This document shows, in pieces, positions 49,782-62,292 of a DNA stretch of 64,000 nt. Source of the stretch: Candidatus Brocadia pituitae (GTDB lineage Bacteria; Planctomycetota; Brocadiia; Brocadiales; Brocadiaceae); NCBI GenBank assembly GCA_017347445.1, contig AP021856.1:2488613-2552612 (forward strand), written 5' to 3'. The position numbers and the translations under genes are program-made. The notes under the pieces are model-generated. The model worked only from the letters and a program-made list of their open reading frames with translations, did no database searches and had not been told where the DNA came from. Within the stretch, counting starts at the first letter, position 1, and each line of letters opens with the position of its first letter.

Positions 49782-51854
49782 TTACCCCACACCTGTTTGA
49801 TGTTTGCTTGGCCACACCGGCACACAACTTTTTACGGGTAGCGTAAAAACGAAGGTACTTCCTTTTCCAAAGATACTTTTTACCCAAATCTTGCCACCGT
49901 GCAATTCAACCAGACGTTTTGTGAGTACCAAACCAAGTCCGGTGCCCTCATACTTCCGCGAAAATGAACTATCCACCTGAAGAAACGCCTTAAATAATTT
50001 ATCCATGTCTTCTTGCCGGATGCCAATGCCTGTGTCACCCACTGCGATCTGGACATGTTGATTGATAAGCTTTGCATTGATGGAAACCCTGCCATTCTCG
50101 GGTGTGAATTTAAAAGCATTCGATAACAAATTATGCATGATCTGTTGAAATTTTTCCTTATCCGCCGTTATCGGCGGCATATCCTTCTGGATATAAGCGC
50201 GTACCCGGATACATTTTTTGTGGAAAGCCCCTTCGATGGTATTCAACACCCCTTGTATGGTTTCTTCTATAGGAAACTCTTCATACTGAAGTTCTAATTT
50301 ACCAGCCTCAATCTTTGAAAGGTCCAGAATACCGTTAATCATGCCGAGGAGATGTTGCCCGCTACTGTGGATATCACTTACAAATTCTTTTTGATCCGTA
50401 CTAAGAGAACCGCTTACTTCGTCCCGTAAAACCTCGGCAAAACCGATAATGGCATTGAGCGGTGTGCGCAGTTCATGCGACATGGTTGCCAAAAACTCCG
50501 ATTTGAGTTTGTTCGCTTTTTCAAGTGCGACATTCGCCTTCTGAAGTTCGTCCGTCCTTTCTGTAACCCTTTTCTCCAGTAAGACGTTCAGGTCTTGAAG
50601 TCTGGTAATACGCATAAAATCTAGCCATGAAGCAACGTCTTCGTATTCGGTAACATTAAGTCCCCTTTTTTCTTCCTCCTGGCTTACCCGGATGCCTATG
50701 GTCTTCTTTAAGCACCAGAAAAAGAGCATGCCCAGACCGAATGACCACGCAAAGGCCACGCCGACACCAATCGCCTGAACGCCAAGCTGATGCGTGCGGT
50801 TACCATGTTCCACCAAAAACTTGGTTGTATCACCGAAAAGGGCAACACAAAGCGTCCCGATAGCGCCACCTACCCCATGAACCGCAACTGCAGAAACGGG
50901 ATCGTCTATCCTCAGCACCTTTTCAATGAAATCCTGGGCGAGGATTGACAGAATACCAGCAATAAGACCAATATAAACAGCACCATCGGGGTTTACCAGA
51001 TCTGACCCTGCGGTAACTGCCACTAAACCTGCCAATATTGACGTAAAGAGCTTACTGGCATTGATTTTCTTCTCTCTTACATAATTAAATATCAACGCCG
51101 ATACCCCGGCTGCAGCCGGAGATAGATTGGTATTGGTAATAACAAGCCCAATGTCTGCGCTTGCCTTGAGCAAACTGCCACCATTAAATCCAAACCAGCC
51201 AAACCAAAGGAAAAAGGTACCTATGGTAACTAACGGAATATTGTGGAGGCCCATTTGGTTAGAAGTACCGTCCGGATTGTATTTGCCAATTCTTGGACCC
51301 ACGACGATAGCCCCTGCCAGGGCAAACCATCCGCCAACAGAATGCACAATCGTAGAACCTGCAAAATCAATAAACCCCAATTTTTCCAGCCAGCCTGACT
51401 GTTCCGGGCAAAAGAGATGCCCCCATGCCCAATGACCAAAAACCGGGTAAATAATGCCGGTTACAAATACGACTGCGATAACATTGGAAATAAAATTTGA
51501 CCGCTCGGCAATAGCTCCTGTCAAGATGGTAGCAGCAGTAGCAGCAAAGACTAATTGAAAAAAGAAAAAACTATACGCTAAATTGTCCTGATGTAACATT
51601 ACTCCCAAGGCAAAGAAATGGTCTGTGCCTATCCAGCCGGAATAGCTTTTGCCAAACATTAATCCAAATCCCACGGTATAAAACACAAGGGAGGCTACCA
51701 GGGTAACCATGAGGTTTTTGATACAAACGCTGATGGCATTTTTGGATTGTGCAAATCCCGCCTCGTAAGAAGTAAAGCCAAGCTGCATGAAAAACACCAT
51801 GCAAGCCGCAGCCATAACCCAGATGTGATTCATATTTATTTGTATATTTTCCAT
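49782..51854 (-). CDS. Ammonium channel-histidine kinase fusion (Amt sensor kinase)
   Basis: A 690-residue fusion. Residues 1-410 form an Amt/Rh-type channel with 11 helices (QLGFTSYEAGFAQSKNAISV, GHWAWG, FAGSTIVHSVGGWFALAGA, VHGVGGAIGTL). A short coiled coil (about 430-470) leads to a dimerisation domain with the phospho-accepting His in ATMSHELRTPLNAIIGF and a kinase ATPase domain (NLLSNAFKFT, GDTGIGIRQEDM, GTGLGL). In the anammox bacterium Kuenenia a protein of this build (Ks-Amt5) is known to sense ammonium rather than transport it. No receiver domain or response regulator is adjacent. It lies 31 bases behind the PilZ protein gene. Confidence 0.95.
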   Translation of the reverse strand: MENIQINMNHIWVMAAACMVFFMQLGFTSYEAGFAQSKNAISVCIKNLMVTLVASLVFYTVGFGLMFGKSYSGWIGTDHFFALGVMLHQDNLAYSFFFFQLVFAATAATILTGAIAERSNFISNVIAVVFVTGIIYPVFGHWAWGHLFCPEQSGWLEKLGFIDFAGSTIVHSVGGWFALAGAIVVGPRIGKYNPDGTSNQMGLHNIPLVTIGTFFLWFGWFGFNGGSLLKASADIGLVITNTNLSPAAAGVSALIFNYVREKKINASKLFTSILAGLVAVTAGSDLVNPDGAVYIGLIAGILSILAQDFIEKVLRIDDPVSAVAVHGVGGAIGTLCVALFGDTTKFLVEHGNRTHQLGVQAIGVGVAFAWSFGLGMLFFWCLKKTIGIRVSQEEEKRGLNVTEYEDVASWLDFMRITRLQDLNVLLEKRVTERTDELQKANVALEKANKLKSEFLATMSHELRTPLNAIIGFAEVLRDEVSGSLSTDQKEFVSDIHSSGQHLLGMINGILDLSKIEAGKLELQYEEFPIEETIQGVLNTIEGAFHKKCIRVRAYIQKDMPPITADKEKFQQIMHNLLSNAFKFTPENGRVSINAKLINQHVQIAVGDTGIGIRQEDMDKLFKAFLQVDSSFSRKYEGTGLGLVLTKRLVELHGGKIWVKSIFGKGSTFVFTLPVKSCVPVWPSKHQTGVG

Positions 51855-51885: not shown

Positions 51886-53304
51886 TCATGATGGGGACGA
51901 TATTATCATCCTGTCGATTTGGTTCGATTCATTCTGTCCCTCTTCTTCCGGAGCTCTTTGTAATCCAATAACCGGTTGAGACCCATTCGTTATCCGCCTG
52001 ATTACGAATTGCTTATTGTTCAGGAAATGATCTGCGATGAAATCTGCTACACGTGGTTCAATTGATGATTCACCTTGCAGCGTAACGACCTGCCCCTTGT
52101 CCCGTAGAAGATCCGCAGCCTCTACTTTCAAGGAAACGCCTTCGCGGGAATAATCACAAACAGAGGCTTTTATTATCGTTTTTCGATCCTGCAAACAGAC
52201 ATGTAACGACGGTTGTTTCCATTCCCATCTCTGACGGGGGAATTTGCGTTGATCGTTGCTATAGAGCGCATGACATTTAGACGCATGTAGCGCATCGAAA
52301 AGATATTTCAACCTTGAAGCATGGGAATCGATGATGTCTTTAACAATCCGATTACGGTCTGCTATACGAGACTCCATATGAAACAAATCCATACCTGACA
52401 TCAGCCACACCTTCTGGAAATGATCTTCGAGTATTTCAAAAGGTTTCCCGCTTTGCTGCATCTGATATTTAAATACCGGCATATGAGATCCGACGCACAG
52501 ATTCGACGAACGCTGGCTTGCGCTTCGCCCAAAGGTATATGGCTGAAAATAAGCCATATTATCAATAATCATAAGCCAGCCTGATGGATTTTGCGTATAA
52601 AATCTGACTGCAGATTCAATATCGGAATAGTTCTGAAGCCTGTCAAAAGTATGGGCAAAGTCGCTGTAGAGTCGCAGATGAAAGATAGGATCATCAGTTG
52701 ACAGTGTTTTTGTCCTGTCTGTATTGATTGTCTTTTCAACCTCATGAGCGGCGCTCTCAAAAAACGTACGGAAAACGGCAGTTTCCTGAAATACGTCGAG
52801 GAGAAGTATCTTGATATCGAGCCCCTTGGTTATCTTTTCGTTCAACGTGGAAAGCAATTCATCGAGATGGACATTTTCAGATAAGGTAATACCGAGAAGC
52901 CAAACCCGCTTTTCTGCCGTTTCAATGGCATCGTAGATATCACCTTTTACATCTTTACGGGAGCAATAGATATTCGTTAAACCGCAGAGGGCTGCCGATC
53001 CGATGAGCCGGTTGGTATGTTGCAGGGATTTCTCTAGAGAATTCCTGTTGTCATCGATCAGTTGGTGTGTGGCCTGAAGGGTTTCTTTTAAAATATTTCT
53101 GATATGCCCAAAGATTTCCCACCACAGATATGCATATTCCATAATGTGCACACACATTATGGCGCTGAAGACAAGAAGCAGATGCTTCACAATCTCAGGA
53201 ATATTGTGCCAGTAACGGGGTAACAGGATGTTCATAGTAACTGCGATAAAAAAGAATAAACACGCTATTACCATTCGAATAAACGGTCTCGGTCTTTCAT
53301 TCAT
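51886..53304 (-). CDS. Membrane-anchored protein with C-terminal PilZ-like domain
   Basis: A 472-residue protein. Two membrane helices (residues about 10-65) are followed by a coiled coil (about 70-100), a central alpha/beta domain (about 100-330, from KRVWLLGITLSENVHLDELL on) that recalls PLD-like or related nuclease folds without catalytic HKD, and a C-terminal domain with RKFPRQRWEW and CDYSREGVSL, which fits the RxxxR and D/NxSxxG motifs of c-di-GMP-binding PilZ domains. An excellent ribosome site (GGAGGTGATGATCT) precedes the ATG. Operon position before the Amt kinase suggests a link between ammonium sensing and c-di-GMP. Confidence 0.72.
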   Translation of the reverse strand: MNERPRPFIRMVIACLFFFIAVTMNILLPRYWHNIPEIVKHLLLVFSAIMCVHIMEYAYLWWEIFGHIRNILKETLQATHQLIDDNRNSLEKSLQHTNRLIGSAALCGLTNIYCSRKDVKGDIYDAIETAEKRVWLLGITLSENVHLDELLSTLNEKITKGLDIKILLLDVFQETAVFRTFFESAAHEVEKTINTDRTKTLSTDDPIFHLRLYSDFAHTFDRLQNYSDIESAVRFYTQNPSGWLMIIDNMAYFQPYTFGRSASQRSSNLCVGSHMPVFKYQMQQSGKPFEILEDHFQKVWLMSGMDLFHMESRIADRNRIVKDIIDSHASRLKYLFDALHASKCHALYSNDQRKFPRQRWEWKQPSLHVCLQDRKTIIKASVCDYSREGVSLKVEAADLLRDKGQVVTLQGESSIEPRVADFIADHFLNNKQFVIRRITNGSQPVIGLQRAPEEEGQNESNQIDRMIISSPS

Positions 53305-57358: not shown

Positions 57359-58696
57359 TTAGAAATATCCCAGACACAACAATATCATTCCGGCGCCCAG
57401 CGGCATGAGCAGGTTGTCCAGAGATCTCAAAGGTAATGACTCAATTATACTGGAAAAGAATGCGGTAAGTAAAGCAGGGAAAAAAGGCAAAGAGATCCAT
57501 CCGCATAAAAAAGCAACCGTCAGGGCGGCAAGCGAACCTTCAATACTTTTTTTAATGTTATAAGGAATTCTGTGGTTGCCCATACTCATACCAACCATTG
57601 CAGCCGCAGTATCAGCAAAGGCCACAATCCAGATAACGGTGCTGGCAATGTGCAAGGGGAAGCATAATAAGCAAAGACATGCGCCCAGAACCAGGGTTAT
57701 TGGTCCGTAAGCAATACCTCGTTCCTCCAGTTTACGGATGCTCGACTTCGTTACACCACCAAAGAGGGGAAGCGAATATCCGTTGATCCTCAAACCCTCT
57801 GAAATGAGATACACAATCACTATAGAAAATAGCGTTATCAACGTCGTATGGTATATAAAATGCGCAAACACCGGAGCAAAGGCAATGAGAACATGTAAGA
57901 ATTTCCTTCTGATTTCCTGATACCAGGAATGAGCAAATTGTTTGCGCATTCCAGCAAACAACGTCTTATAAGAATCTGCATCTTCGACATCCATGATGTC
58001 CAGCATCTCTGACAGGTTTCCGCTGTCAATTAGATACTGTGCCCGCTTCCGGACGGCATAATGTGCATTGACACCGATGTTAATGCCTGCTTTTTCCATA
58101 ATATCGATGTTATTACGATCATCCACCAGGACAATGGTATCTTGCCATGAAAGATTATTTTTTACCAACATCTCTTCAATAAGGTCTTTTTTCCCTCCGG
58201 GTTTTAAAAGCGGCCCAAATACCACCCCGGTCAACCGATCAGCATTCGTATCAATTCCTATACCATATCCATGATTCGCAGACAGTCTTGCCGCAAGGTC
58301 TTTCACAAAGGGATCCGGTACGCCACTGCTGATGAAAACCACCAGATATCCATGATTTCTCAGGGTTGCAATCGTTTCCCTTGCACGCACTATCACGGGA
58401 ATATTTTCATAGATCCTTTGAGCCTGCCCAAGCATAATGCCTTGAAAACGGGCGTATACCCGTGTAATCAACGTGTGGATTGACATTTTATCCATGTTAA
58501 AGAGGAGACAGAGTAATGCAGTACGTATATACACCAGTATTCCAAGAGAACGTGCAACATGCAAGATAAACTGTCCTTTGAACAGGACTCCATCCACGTC
58601 CATGACAACGAGTTTTTTCCACGTTATTTGCAAAGGGGTAGAATGCGAAGAAACAGATTGGGTGAGATTCTGTGGAGTTATGGTTATCGGTACCAT
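57359..58696 (-). CDS. HAD phosphatase fused to dolichol/phytol-kinase-like membrane domain
   Basis: A 445-residue fusion. Residues about 30-235 are a SerB-like HAD hydrolase (VMDVDGVLFKGQ nucleophile loop, VVFISSGVPDPF, GGKKDLIEEML, IVLVDDRNNIDIMEKAG). Residues about 265-445 are a polytopic membrane domain (EIRRKFLHVLIAFAPVFAHF, GVTKSSIRKLEERGIAYGPI, VAFADTAAAMVGMSMG, KSIEGSLAALTVAF) like dolichol kinase, phytol kinase (VTE5) and CDP-diglyceride synthase relatives. A phosphatase and a CTP-dependent lipid kinase in one chain suggests prenyl-alcohol or lipid head-group metabolism. Two genes away lies the geranylgeranyl-reductase-like protein. Confidence 0.8.
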   Translation of the reverse strand: MVPITITPQNLTQSVSSHSTPLQITWKKLVVMDVDGVLFKGQFILHVARSLGILVYIRTALLCLLFNMDKMSIHTLITRVYARFQGIMLGQAQRIYENIPVIVRARETIATLRNHGYLVVFISSGVPDPFVKDLAARLSANHGYGIGIDTNADRLTGVVFGPLLKPGGKKDLIEEMLVKNNLSWQDTIVLVDDRNNIDIMEKAGINIGVNAHYAVRKRAQYLIDSGNLSEMLDIMDVEDADSYKTLFAGMRKQFAHSWYQEIRRKFLHVLIAFAPVFAHFIYHTTLITLFSIVIVYLISEGLRINGYSLPLFGGVTKSSIRKLEERGIAYGPITLVLGACLCLLCFPLHIASTVIWIVAFADTAAAMVGMSMGNHRIPYNIKKSIEGSLAALTVAFLCGWISLPFFPALLTAFFSSIIESLPLRSLDNLLMPLGAGMILLCLGYF

Positions 58697-59090: not shown

Positions 59091-61781
59091 TTATTGAAGC
59101 GCAAGAAATGACAGCATGCGTTTTACCAGCCAGCAAATAATTGCCGTGGATATTTTGCGTATAACTGATATGCTGATTGTATCGAATACAATCTCCCGGT
59201 ATGGCTTTTTCCCTGACACGCTGTCGAACAATGCCTTTTTCAATGCAGGGTCGTTTTTTGCAATCTGAATGACCGGTGTAAGGAAACCATAATAGGCACC
59301 CCAGATCACCAATCTCCTCACGGTATGCGCATAGGGAAGGTCTTTTATAACCTCACGAAAGCCCTGCAGGTACGTACGAAATGCCTTTTGGGATATCCCT
59401 ACGTTCATCATGACCTCTGCCGCTCTGATGCCCATTAAGCAAGCAGAATTAATCCCTTTGCCTTTGAAAGGGCGAATAAGACCTGCCGCATCGCCAACGG
59501 TGACATATCTGTCTCCAAAGAGATGGCTGGCAGGTTTTATGGGAAAACAACCGCGATGATAATCCAGTTTCTCCTGCGATTTACTGAAGTTTTTGGGAAG
59601 TATTTCCAGAACATCTGACAAGCATAAAAATTCATCCATCGATCTGGTGGAAATTTTTGCCCCGGCAATGTTGATGGTATAATGATCTGCCTTCGGGGTT
59701 ATTGCGCCAAACTCTATGCCTTTTATGGAAGGCAAAAAGGCATGGATATACCCATCCATAACTTCCAGACTGTGATGCTTGCCTTTCGGATGAAATTTCG
59801 TGAGTAAGGTTAATAAAAATTTTGGAGACTGATAGGGTGTCTCACGTTCAAATATCCTTTGGGTACCTTCTTCAAGCCCAAACGCCCCTACAACGGCATC
59901 GGCCCGTACGTGTCTTGTTTCACTGTATACCGCAACATGATTTTTTGCAATTTCAACATCAGTGACCTTGCTGCGAATTACCGTGGCTCCGGCTTCTGTT
60001 GCCTTTTGCAAGAGATAGGCATCAAACTGTACCCGCCGGAGCGCATATGAAACTTCTCCCTCTCCATCGAGTTTGGTGACATAGCCGTTGGTATGAAGAT
60101 AATAGCCAGGCACTTTCCTTTTCACGAGGTGCCAGGGGAAAGGGATGCCTAGATTGTCTTCAATAATATGTTCAATGGGTTGCGAGAGAACACCAGCGCA
60201 TTCATTGTGGTCAATCCCCCCTTCAAAGTCCTTGTATTCGTAAATAATAACGTCCAGATTGATATTGCTTTTTTTTGCAAGATTTTTCAGGGCGATCGCA
60301 CAACTGGCACCGGCAGGGCCTCCGCCAATGATTGCAACGGTTTGGCCATCTTTCAGGGGGCCCATATCTCCCGCCGGGAGATATTTTTGTTTTTTCGTAT
60401 GCCCGAAGAGTATCGGGTACCGGAGATAATCATATCCCTGTCTTACTGCAGCACGTACTATGTGCGGGAACATGGCAAGGTGCAAACGCACGTCAATAGC
60501 CTTGAAAAAAATCTCTTTATAGCTTGCATTGCCAGTAACCATATTCCAAAGGACATTATTAATCTGGATCGATTCCCATGCATTCGGTTGGTTCGTCAAG
60601 AGCTCAATCTGCACGTTTACCAGGTGTTTTTTGGACGTAATATGCTCATGAATGCGGAACAAGAGATTGCCAAAAAAATTGTCCTGCGCCAAAAGCCTTA
60701 AGGCAGGTTGATAATACCCCTTTTTAAAATGCTCCTCAGAAATACCCCGTTCAAAGATGGTGCGGGCGGCTAATTGTGCCGTATCAAATGCAGATTCAAT
60801 GCCGTTTTTGTAGGTACGGGAAATACTCGCTTCGCCAATGATCACGAACCTGTGTGTATAGGGATGGTCAGCATGGGTAACGGGTATTTTGGGAAAACAG
60901 ATACAGAGGTCTTTGGGCAACGACCACCCATCAGGAAGAAGTTCGCGCACCCTGGGATGTCTCATGAATTCAACCAGGTGGGCCTTTGTCATGTCATCCT
61001 TGCCGATAAGAGAGATCGTAACATAGTCCACCTTTGGTATAAAAGCGGCAAATTTGATCGGTTTAATACCTAAGGCGAATGCGTAAATAGTGTTGTGAAA
61101 ACGTTCCTGAATGAAGGAACTTCCCAGGTAGATTTCGGCATTGCACGTCCGCACCGATTTTGGTTCCCGATAGCCGAATTCTTTTCCCACAATCCGTTTA
61201 ACAAGCGCAGTGTTCAACCCAAATGCGCCGACGATGAGATCGGCAGACATCTTTTTTCTGACATTAGCCTCTTTATATACAATATTTACAAAATCCTGCG
61301 GATCTTTCGGCAACTCTATCTCTTCTACAACTGCCCCAACAAGCTTTGCCCCCTGAGAAGTAACCTGTTTCAGTAAAAAATCGTCAAAACTAATATTGGT
61401 TATTTCCGTTGAAAATCGGGGACCATTCCCGCGAAAGACCGTAATTATTCTTGGTTTATGTCCGGGGTTTGGGTGGTGAAGTTGAATGCCGCGTTCCTGC
61501 GTCTGGAAGTAGTAGCCGTCAATTTCCTGCTGGACCCGCATTTTGGGGAGTACGATCTTCTGTCCCTCCATTTTATCAAGGAGGGTTTCAGACAGGACCC
61601 CTGCGCACATGTTGCATCCAACGGGACCTTTTTGAATAAAGTTTCTGCCATCAAGAATGGTTATGTGAATCCGGAGCCCATGTTTCTTTGCAAGTTCCAG
61701 GGCAAAATGGGTAAAAAAACTCCCCGCCGGACCGCCACCAATAACTACAATACTTGACCCGTCTCTGAGTTGAAGATTCAT
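59091..61781 (-). CDS. Double-headed geranylgeranyl-reductase-like flavoprotein
   Basis: An 896-residue protein made of two complete copies of a geranylgeranyl-reductase/FixC-type FAD enzyme. Copy 1 (residues about 8-450) has IVVIGGGPAGSFFTH and GCNMCAGVLSETLLDKM; copy 2 (about 480-896) has VAIIGGGPAGASCAIAL, HNECAGVLSQPIEHII and the canonical second FAD motif YVTVGDAAGLIRPFKGKGIN. In copy 1 that second motif is altered (VIIGEASISRTYKNGIE). The family saturates isoprenoid chains of lipids or quinones. The single-copy enzymes have about 400 residues, so the fusion is unusual. Confidence 0.88.
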   Translation of the reverse strand: MNLQLRDGSSIVVIGGGPAGSFFTHFALELAKKHGLRIHITILDGRNFIQKGPVGCNMCAGVLSETLLDKMEGQKIVLPKMRVQQEIDGYYFQTQERGIQLHHPNPGHKPRIITVFRGNGPRFSTEITNISFDDFLLKQVTSQGAKLVGAVVEEIELPKDPQDFVNIVYKEANVRKKMSADLIVGAFGLNTALVKRIVGKEFGYREPKSVRTCNAEIYLGSSFIQERFHNTIYAFALGIKPIKFAAFIPKVDYVTISLIGKDDMTKAHLVEFMRHPRVRELLPDGWSLPKDLCICFPKIPVTHADHPYTHRFVIIGEASISRTYKNGIESAFDTAQLAARTIFERGISEEHFKKGYYQPALRLLAQDNFFGNLLFRIHEHITSKKHLVNVQIELLTNQPNAWESIQINNVLWNMVTGNASYKEIFFKAIDVRLHLAMFPHIVRAAVRQGYDYLRYPILFGHTKKQKYLPAGDMGPLKDGQTVAIIGGGPAGASCAIALKNLAKKSNINLDVIIYEYKDFEGGIDHNECAGVLSQPIEHIIEDNLGIPFPWHLVKRKVPGYYLHTNGYVTKLDGEGEVSYALRRVQFDAYLLQKATEAGATVIRSKVTDVEIAKNHVAVYSETRHVRADAVVGAFGLEEGTQRIFERETPYQSPKFLLTLLTKFHPKGKHHSLEVMDGYIHAFLPSIKGIEFGAITPKADHYTINIAGAKISTRSMDEFLCLSDVLEILPKNFSKSQEKLDYHRGCFPIKPASHLFGDRYVTVGDAAGLIRPFKGKGINSACLMGIRAAEVMMNVGISQKAFRTYLQGFREVIKDLPYAHTVRRLVIWGAYYGFLTPVIQIAKNDPALKKALFDSVSGKKPYREIVFDTISISVIRKISTAIICWLVKRMLSFLALQ

Positions 61782-61936: not shown

Positions 61937-62275
61937 CTAGATAGCCATTTCTCCCCTTTCCGCGGTGCGAATACGAACAACATTTTCAACAGTGGAAATA
62001 AAAATCTTGCCGTCTCCAATATTCCCTGTTTTGGCCTCTTTTATAATGCATTCCACAATTTTGTCAACATCCCTGTCTGCAACCACCATTTCCAGCTGTA
62101 TTTTTTTCAAAAGTTCTGTTCTGTACGTCCTTCCACGCCACTGCTCGGTAATGCCCTTTTGGTGTCCATGCCCTTTGACCTCGGTTATTGTCATGCCTGG
62201 ATATCCGATATCTAATAAGGCGTCCTTCACCATTACAAATCTATCCTCTCTCACAATTGCCACAATTTTTTTCAT
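61937..62275 (-). CDS. P-II family nitrogen regulatory protein (GlnB/GlnK-like)
   Basis: A 112-residue trimeric signalling protein that reports nitrogen and energy state by binding 2-oxoglutarate and ATP/ADP. The start MKKIVAIVREDRFVMVKDAL, the T-loop GHGHQKGITEQWRGRTYRTE with the conserved Tyr (candidate uridylylation site) and the B-loop TGNIGDGKIFIS are present. The ATG at 62275 is spaced from GGAGAA; an upstream TTG is less likely. P-II genes usually neighbour amt; here the Amt kinase is 10 kb away on the same strand. Confidence 0.93.
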   Translation of the reverse strand: MKKIVAIVREDRFVMVKDALLDIGYPGMTITEVKGHGHQKGITEQWRGRTYRTELLKKIQLEMVVADRDVDKIVECIIKEAKTGNIGDGKIFISTVENVVRIRTAERGEMAI

Positions 62276-62292
62276 ATGTTTGTTCTCCAATA

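What the first reader, a model, noticed from the sequence alone, without database searches (positions are those of the whole stretch)
59091..61781. Tandem geranylgeranyl-reductase fusion with one altered FAD motif
Two full GGR-like units are fused in one 896-residue chain. The C-terminal unit has a canonical GDAAG motif, while the N-terminal one has GEASISRT, suggesting one catalytic and one regulatory or differently specific head. Fused double GGRs are unusual, and in an anammox-like organism with exotic lipids a role in saturating polyprenyl or other polyunsaturated lipid chains deserves testing.
Basis: partly seen in the sequence, partly recalled or inferred. Interest (0 to 1): 0.7.

Follow-up and report, generated by a model that had tools for sequence, protein, structure and literature searches.

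The report
Two-headed flavoprotein fused in anammox bacteria
The gene really encodes two related flavin-binding (geranylgeranyl-reductase-like) units in one chain, but the same pair occurs in several unrelated bacterial phyla, sometimes fused and sometimes as two neighbouring genes; in Scalindua, in a second anammox family and in Aminicenantes it lies beside respiratory Rieske/cytochrome b genes, so it is more likely an uncharacterised menaquinone- or isoprenoid-linked respiratory enzyme than a ladderane-lipid invention.

Summary
In detail: window 59091..61781 (-) is an intact 896-residue ORF with two GGR-fold FAD units (N 1-453, C 471-896, 29% identical) and a disordered linker. The interpretation mostly fails. 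(1) The 'altered FAD motif' GEAS is a private D-to-E change of this species; almost all Brocadiaceae relatives have GDAS, and both halves are under equal purifying selection. (2) The N+C pair is not tied to ladderanes: it is fused or adjacent in Aminicenantes, Myxococcota, Abyssobacteria, Poribacteria, Zixibacteria and Chloroflexota, with at least 6 fused/separate switches on the C tree; one anammox family has it split, and one 99%-complete anammox genome lacks it. (3) The prenyl-binding YxWxFP...GxG motif of proven GGRs is absent from both heads; the active-site Cys is kept. New leads: an invariant Cys signature in all 90 N units (C56, C293, C295; C59 in 76); linkage to Rieske/cytochrome b operons, three of them with an NAD(P) oxidoreductase gene; N units fused to NDH-2 or to a cyclic-nucleotide-binding domain. 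Best reading: a membrane-associated two-flavin oxidoreductase acting on the menaquinone/isoprenoid pool. Substrate unproven; linkage is not obligatory.

The parts
59091..61781 (-). Fused two-headed GGR-superfamily flavoprotein, 896 aa
   Evidence: Intact ORF; conserved as one ORF across the order; AF2 model pLDDT 85.6, pTM 0.75
60423..61781 (-). N unit (residues 1-453): FAD domain, substrate domain, C-terminal helical region
   Evidence: GG-red-SF match; AF2 of the unit alone pLDDT 92.7, pTM 0.92; Foldseek hits squalene epoxidase, halogenases, GGR, FixC
61722..61739 (-). N unit GGGPAG (15-20), FAD dinucleotide motif
   Evidence: Near-invariant in 90 N units
61605..61616 (-). N unit C56-N-M-C59; C59 is at the position of the GGR active-site Cys
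   Evidence: C56 in 90/90, C59 in 76/90 N units (Ser in 14)
60897..60905 (-). N unit C293-I-C295
   Evidence: Both Cys in 90/90 N units
60825..60836 (-). N unit GEAS (316-319), the 'altered' motif; codon 317 is GAA
   Evidence: Asp in 83/90 N units; Glu here and in one Chloroflexota sequence; Ser/Gly/Asn in Scalindua-like fused heads
60372..60422 (-). Disordered linker (454-470)
   Evidence: AF2 pLDDT below 50
59091..60371 (-). C unit (residues 471-896)
   Evidence: Profile of the C family matches FixC 7koe (E=5e-11) and GGR 3oz2; separate gene in one anammox family and in other phyla
60309..60326 (-). C unit GGGPAG (486-491)
   Evidence: Invariant glycines in 51 C units
60198..60200 (-). C unit C528, position of the GGR active-site Cys
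   Evidence: 47/51 C units; Arg in the anammox family f2
59454..59495 (-). C unit GDAAGLIRPFKGKG (763-776)
   Evidence: Nearly invariant in 51 C units
59097..59171 (-). Hydrophobic C-terminal helix (871-895), possible membrane contact
   Evidence: AF2 helix; most hydrophobic 19-residue stretch of the protein
57359..58696 (-). Downstream conserved neighbour in Brocadiaceae: HAD phosphatase domain plus membrane domain (resembles dolichol/phytol kinases from memory only)
   Evidence: HAD match; near the fused gene in 14 Brocadiaceae loci

Best explanation
The gene encodes a membrane-associated, two-flavin oxidoreductase made of two ancient, non-equivalent members of the GGR/FixC branch of group-A flavoproteins (N and C), which normally work as a pair and were joined into one chain in several lineages. 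Most likely it works on the menaquinone/polyprenyl pool of the respiratory membrane. One head takes up two electrons on its FAD and passes them, with help from the flavin-adjacent Cys (C59/C528) and the extra conserved Cys set of the N head (C56, C293, C295), to or from a membrane isoprenoid, menaquinone being the first candidate, in functional association with Rieske/cytochrome b complexes. Shown: fold (predicted model), fusion, ancient pairing, motif conservation, gene linkage in some lineages. Inferred: FAD in both heads, electron transfer between heads, membrane location, quinone as substrate, direction of the reaction.
For: N and C occur together across phyla as one ORF or as neighbouring genes; in the genome samples outside the anammox order every genome with a C match also had an N match. 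Fold of GGR, FixC and squalene epoxidase type, all acting on membrane lipids or quinones. In Scalindua the fused gene follows, on the same strand, Rieske - NAD(P) oxidoreductase - cyt b - subunit IV - cyt c - multihaem - N copy. In family f2 the lone C gene follows the same kind of operon. In Aminicenantes the fused gene lies about 7 kb from an NAD(P) oxidoreductase - Rieske - cyt b cluster. In CSMAG_2693 it adjoins a hexahaem cytochrome gene (NapC-type by Pfam in its relative L168) with Rieske/cyt b about 5-6 kb on. Cyt b within 10 kb in 4 of 18 lineages, expected 0.38, P=3.7e-4, chosen post hoc. N-type units are fused to an NDH-2-like NADH:quinone oxidoreductase in two Chloroflexota. Rieske/cyt b complexes of this kind are proposed to make NAD(P)H from menaquinol (PMC12954380).
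Against: The linkage is not obligatory: in Brocadia, Kuenenia and most other lineages no cyt b gene is near, and in the Aminicenantes phylum sample the marker cytochrome c of the complex and the N-C pair often occur apart (overlap 2 of 6 and 6 in 149 genomes, P=0.019). Restricted to non-anammox lineages the cyt b linkage is weak (P=0.019). The main quinone of K. stuttgartiensis is named MK-7 (PMC12954380), so constitutive saturation of its side chain is unlikely. No cofactor, substrate or location has been measured.
Confidence: 0.38

Rival explanations
1. It is a prenyl/polyprenyl reductase in the ordinary GGR sense, saturating isoprenoid chains of lipids, polyprenols or quinones, the two heads reducing different bonds.
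For: GGR fold with TaGGR as best structural match of the fused model; active-site Cys at the GGR position in both heads; GKG at the GGG/GEG/REG position in the C head; in Brocadiaceae a HAD-plus-membrane-domain gene lies near.
Against: YxWxFPx7-8GxG, present in the proven GGRs compared in PMC6309074, is absent in both heads and in the families as a whole; below the NCBIfam cut-off; K. stuttgartiensis carries the fused gene yet its main quinone is listed as MK-7 (PMC12954380).
Confidence: 0.22
2. It serves ladderane lipid synthesis.
For: Present, fused or split, in all anammox families examined; the only copy in Kuenenia is the fused gene.
Against: Same pair, often fused, in at least five other phylum-level groups; split in anammox family f2; absent from the hzsA-positive, 99%-complete genome G010, though that genome also lacks the neighbouring gene, so a gap in the assembly is possible; no geranylgeranyl reductase is mentioned among the candidate ladderane genes of PMC2649909.
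Confidence: 0.05
3. It is an FixC/ETF-QO-like electron entry point that passes electrons from a soluble donor to menaquinone without modifying it.
For: The C-family profile hits FixC best among solved structures (E=5e-11); N-type units fused to NDH-2; respiratory neighbours.
Against: No ETF (fixAB) or fixX genes recognised beside the loci read (not searched genome-wide); ETF-QO's own Fe-S domain is not present.
Confidence: 0.2
4. It is a redox-sensing or signalling flavoprotein.
For: Paralogous N-type genes sit with cNMP-binding proteins, histidine kinases and a response regulator with a cyclase domain; one is fused to a cNMP-binding domain (L175); in Scalindua a histidine kinase and response regulator follow the fused gene.
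Against: That context is mainly of the separate N3 clade; in Brocadia the fused gene has no such neighbours; catalytic-type residues are strictly conserved.
Confidence: 0.12

Closest known systems
Geranylgeranyl reductases (TaGGR 3oz2, SaGGR 4opt, ChlP/BchP, Myxococcota sterol reductase Bsr)
   Same: Fold, FAD motifs, active-site Cys position, GKG at the GGG/GEG position in the C head
   Different: Two heads in one chain; no YxWxFP and no GxG; N head one residue shorter after GDAS and with an extra conserved Cys set; 20% identity or less
FixC / ETF-quinone oxidoreductase (7koe chain C, 2gmh)
   Same: Same superfamily, best PDB profile hit of the C family, membrane quinone chemistry
   Different: No ETF partners recognised nearby, no FixX/4Fe-4S domain; tandem architecture
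Squalene epoxidase and KMO-type group-A flavoproteins (6c6n, 6foz)
   Same: Best structural matches of the N unit include these, with a helical C-terminal region
   Different: Those are O2-dependent monooxygenases; anammox hosts are anaerobes and sequence identity is about 12-15%
Rieske/cytochrome b complexes with NAD(P) oxidoreductase of K. stuttgartiensis (Kuste4569-4574, Kustd1480-1485)
   Same: The same kind of operon adjoins the N-C genes in Scalindua, anammox family f2 and Aminicenantes
   Different: The N-C protein is not the NAD(P) oxidoreductase subunit, which is a separate GltD-like Fe-S/FAD gene

Membership tests
Geranylgeranyl reductase (GGR) | GGR/PHBH-type flavoprotein fold with GxGxxG FAD motif | tested here: met
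Geranylgeranyl reductase (GGR) | Active-site cysteine behind the isoalloxazine (SaGGR Cys47, TaGGR Cys45) | tested here: met
   C59 and C528 precede the (A/G)G-V-L element; assigned by motif position, not by a solved structure; Ser in 14 of 90 N units, Arg in 4 of 51 C units
Geranylgeranyl reductase (GGR) | YxWxFPx7-8GxG substrate motif | tested here: not met
   N: FAAFIPK...LIG; C: FGAITPK...IAG; TaGGR has YIWVFPKGEGMANVGIG at the same place
Geranylgeranyl reductase (GGR) | GGG motif (GEG/REG in bacterial and plant enzymes) | tested here: inconclusive
   C head GKG, N head K-NG and one residue shorter
Geranylgeranyl reductase (GGR) | Score above the curated NCBIfam TIGR02032 cut-off | tested here: not met
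   145.2 bits for both units together against 158.8; N unit alone 54.5
Geranylgeranyl reductase (GGR) | Reduction of prenyl double bonds | not testable with these tools
   Needs enzyme assay
FixC / ETF-QO | Sequence-profile and fold similarity | tested here: met
FixC / ETF-QO | ETF (fixAB) and fixX/ferredoxin partners | tested here: inconclusive
   Not recognised among neighbours read; no genome-wide search made
Ladderane biosynthesis gene | Restricted to ladderane makers | tested here: not met
   Pair present in several non-anammox phyla; absent in one near-complete anammox genome
Component of the Rieske/cyt b complex | Constant gene linkage and co-occurrence | tested here: not met
   Linked in 4 of 18 lineages only; co-occurrence loose

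The most novel reading that the evidence does not exclude
N-C is an unrecognised respiratory enzyme: a two-flavin protein whose N head carries an additional redox centre (Fe-S cluster or flavin-coupled disulfide) built from the C-x2-C and C-x-C cysteines, exchanging electrons between the menaquinone pool and an isoprenoid or quinone substrate beside NAD(P)H-forming Rieske/cytochrome b complexes, with paralogues gated by cyclic nucleotides.
Probability: 0.15. Interest if true: 0.75.

Novelty: new variant of a known kind. Interest (0 to 1): 0.48.

Why it matters
It replaces a lipid curiosity with a testable, cross-phylum flavoprotein pair that no paper found here describes. If it works on menaquinone beside the Rieske/cytochrome b complexes that are thought to make NAD(P)H in anammox bacteria, it bears directly on how these chemolithoautotrophs obtain reducing power, an open question (PMC12954380). 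It also shows that annotating such genes as geranylgeranyl reductase is unsafe.

Tried and rejected
Assembly artefact: rejected (single complete contig, dozens of homologues as one ORF). Degenerate N head: rejected for Brocadia (dN/dS 0.09 and 0.07 against 0.07 and 0.09 in the C head). Triple fusion in Scalindua, suspected from open-frame lengths near 1,400: rejected, a stop separates the N copy from the fused gene. A sulfur or thiamine role from thiE-thiL-thiM, CysK, SiR-like and JAMM/TusA neighbours: thiamine genes are near only in Aminicenantes and the sulfur genes mostly in anammox; kept as a lead only. Paper searches for the fusion or for this gene in anammox bacteria found nothing relevant. 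Distances between the conserved cysteines could not be measured because model coordinates were not supplied.

Full report
Observation. The ORF at 59091..61781 (-) is intact, 896 aa. Its host genome is a single 4,075,302-base contig with hydrazine synthase (PF18582); the nearest named relatives are Brocadia. Each half scores as a GGR-superfamily protein, though below the curated cut-off. The halves are 29% identical. AlphaFold2 gives two units with a disordered linker at 454-470; Foldseek puts TaGGR first for the fusion, and squalene epoxidase, halogenases, GGR and FixC among the best for the N unit.

The altered motif. GEAS is a species-specific change. In one search, residue 317 is Asp in 83 of 90 N units; Glu occurs only here and in one Chloroflexota sequence. 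All other Brocadiaceae fusions in which the motif could be read have Asp. The nearest relative with the gene, G008, is 84% identical and has GDAS. dN/dS is 0.09 (N) and 0.07 (C) against G008, 0.07 and 0.09 against G001. So there is no sign that one head is degenerate or merely regulatory here.

Distribution. The fused gene, whole or in part, is in 29 of 33 Brocadiaceae genomes examined, 2 of 2 in f5 (Anammoxibacter), 16 of 17 in f4 and 1 of 1 in f3. In family f2, also hzsA-positive, the two units are separate, unlinked genes (counts made by hand from the table). In the genomes sampled outside the order but in the phylum only weak generic matches appear. A scan of 84,980 species genomes found the pair elsewhere at 34-51% identity: one ORF in Aminicenantes, Myxococcota, Abyssobacteria, Poribacteria and an unassigned bacterium; adjacent separate ORFs in Zixibacteria, Anaerolineae and other Chloroflexota and in Aminicenantes JdFR-78. 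Such low identity makes anammox contamination an unlikely source for these; one contig labelled Parcubacteria (L147) looks misbinned. Trees need 7 (C) and 6 (N) changes between fused and separate, at least 6 and 5 forced by well-supported branches. The fusion is therefore a recurrent state of an old partnership.

Membership. Published GGR hallmarks (PMC6309074, PMC12004948) are an active-site Cys, YxWxFPx7-8GxG and GGG/GEG/REG. The Cys is kept in both heads (C59, C528). YxWxFP reads FAAFIP in N and FGAITP in C, and GxG is lost, across both families. It is therefore not filed as a GGR, though it may work like one. The N family has its own mark: C56, C293 and C295 in 90 of 90, C59 in 76 of 90.

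Context. Clustering of neighbours ranks cytochrome b first and other subunits of a Rieske/cyt b complex near the top among families shared between anammox and other phyla. Reading outwards showed in Scalindua, on one strand: siroheme gene, SiR-like, DsrE, JAMM, Rieske, NAD(P) oxidoreductase, cyt b, subunit IV, cyt c, multihaem, N copy, fused N-C, histidine kinase, response regulator. In f2 the lone C gene ends such an operon, and the N gene sits by SiR-like/CysK/JAMM genes. In Aminicenantes G117 both fused copies lie about 7 kb from an alternative-complex-III-like, NAD(P) oxidoreductase, Rieske, cyt b cluster. Cyt b within 10 kb: 4 of 18 lineages against 0.38 expected, P=3.7e-4, with family and distance chosen after seeing the data; non-anammox lineages alone give P=0.019. 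The complex and the pair also occur apart (overlap P=0.019), and in Brocadia and Kuenenia no cyt b lies near. The complex type was described in K. stuttgartiensis as a likely NAD(P)H generator (PMC12954380).

Domain fusions of N-type units: with an NDH-2-like module in L171 (Pfam) and by eye in L172; with a cNMP-binding domain in L175; with an NAD-epimerase/DUF2867 protein in L170. In the host genome a separate N-type gene (C1:3324001-3325299) is followed by a cNMP-binding-like gene, an ABC-type binding protein, a histidine kinase and a response regulator with a guanylate/adenylate cyclase domain (the cNMP domain was confirmed by Pfam in the Scalindua counterpart L059).

Explanation. I favour a membrane-associated two-flavin oxidoreductase working on the menaquinone/isoprenoid pool (0.38). 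Shown: fusion, pairing, predicted fold, conservation, partial linkage. Inferred: flavin in both heads, electron transfer between heads, substrate, location. Rivals: ordinary prenyl reductase (0.22), FixC-like electron entry (0.20), signalling flavoprotein (0.12), ladderane enzyme (0.05).

Verdict. Real fusion, wrong emphasis. An uncharacterised cross-phylum variant of a known superfamily, of moderate interest.

Noticed in passing
Host genome C1:3324001-3325299 and downstream (locus L071, 1509-7393): A separate N-type flavoprotein gene followed by a cNMP-binding-like gene, an ABC substrate-binding protein, a histidine kinase and a response regulator with an adenylate/guanylate cyclase domain; the N-cNMP pairing recurs in the Aminicenantes phylum, Abyssobacteria and Chloroflexota and is fused in L175.
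   Followed up: partly
L034, L035, L037, L038 and L094-L102 (Scalindua): The fused N head has lost the Asp of GDAS in all Scalindua-like genomes read, while an intact N gene lies just upstream: possible division of labour after duplication.
   Followed up: partly
L171 6530-9133 and L172 7070-9595: N-type unit fused to an NDH-2-like NADH dehydrogenase in Chloroflexota.
   Followed up: partly
L044 1403-8410 (Anammoxibacter): Fused gene followed by genes that read like HdrABC and MvhD subunits (recognised by eye).
   Followed up: no
window 51886-53304 and L055 5220-7025: The window protein shares a C-terminal domain (KFPR..WEW...PSL..CLQD...DYSREG) with a domain fused to an N-type unit in L055; looks PilZ-like by eye, no Pfam match for L055 at E 0.001.
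   Followed up: no
window 49782-51854: Ammonium transporter fused to a histidine kinase (by eye), about 10 kb from a P-II gene (61937-62290).
   Followed up: no
L093 (5998-8773), L101 (6047-8705), G007 C17: Fused gene broken into two overlapping frames in three Brocadia-like genomes; sequencing error or true frameshift not decided.
   Followed up: no
L147: Contig labelled Parcubacteria carries Scalindua-like N-C, histidine kinase and response regulator genes: probably misbinned.
   Followed up: no
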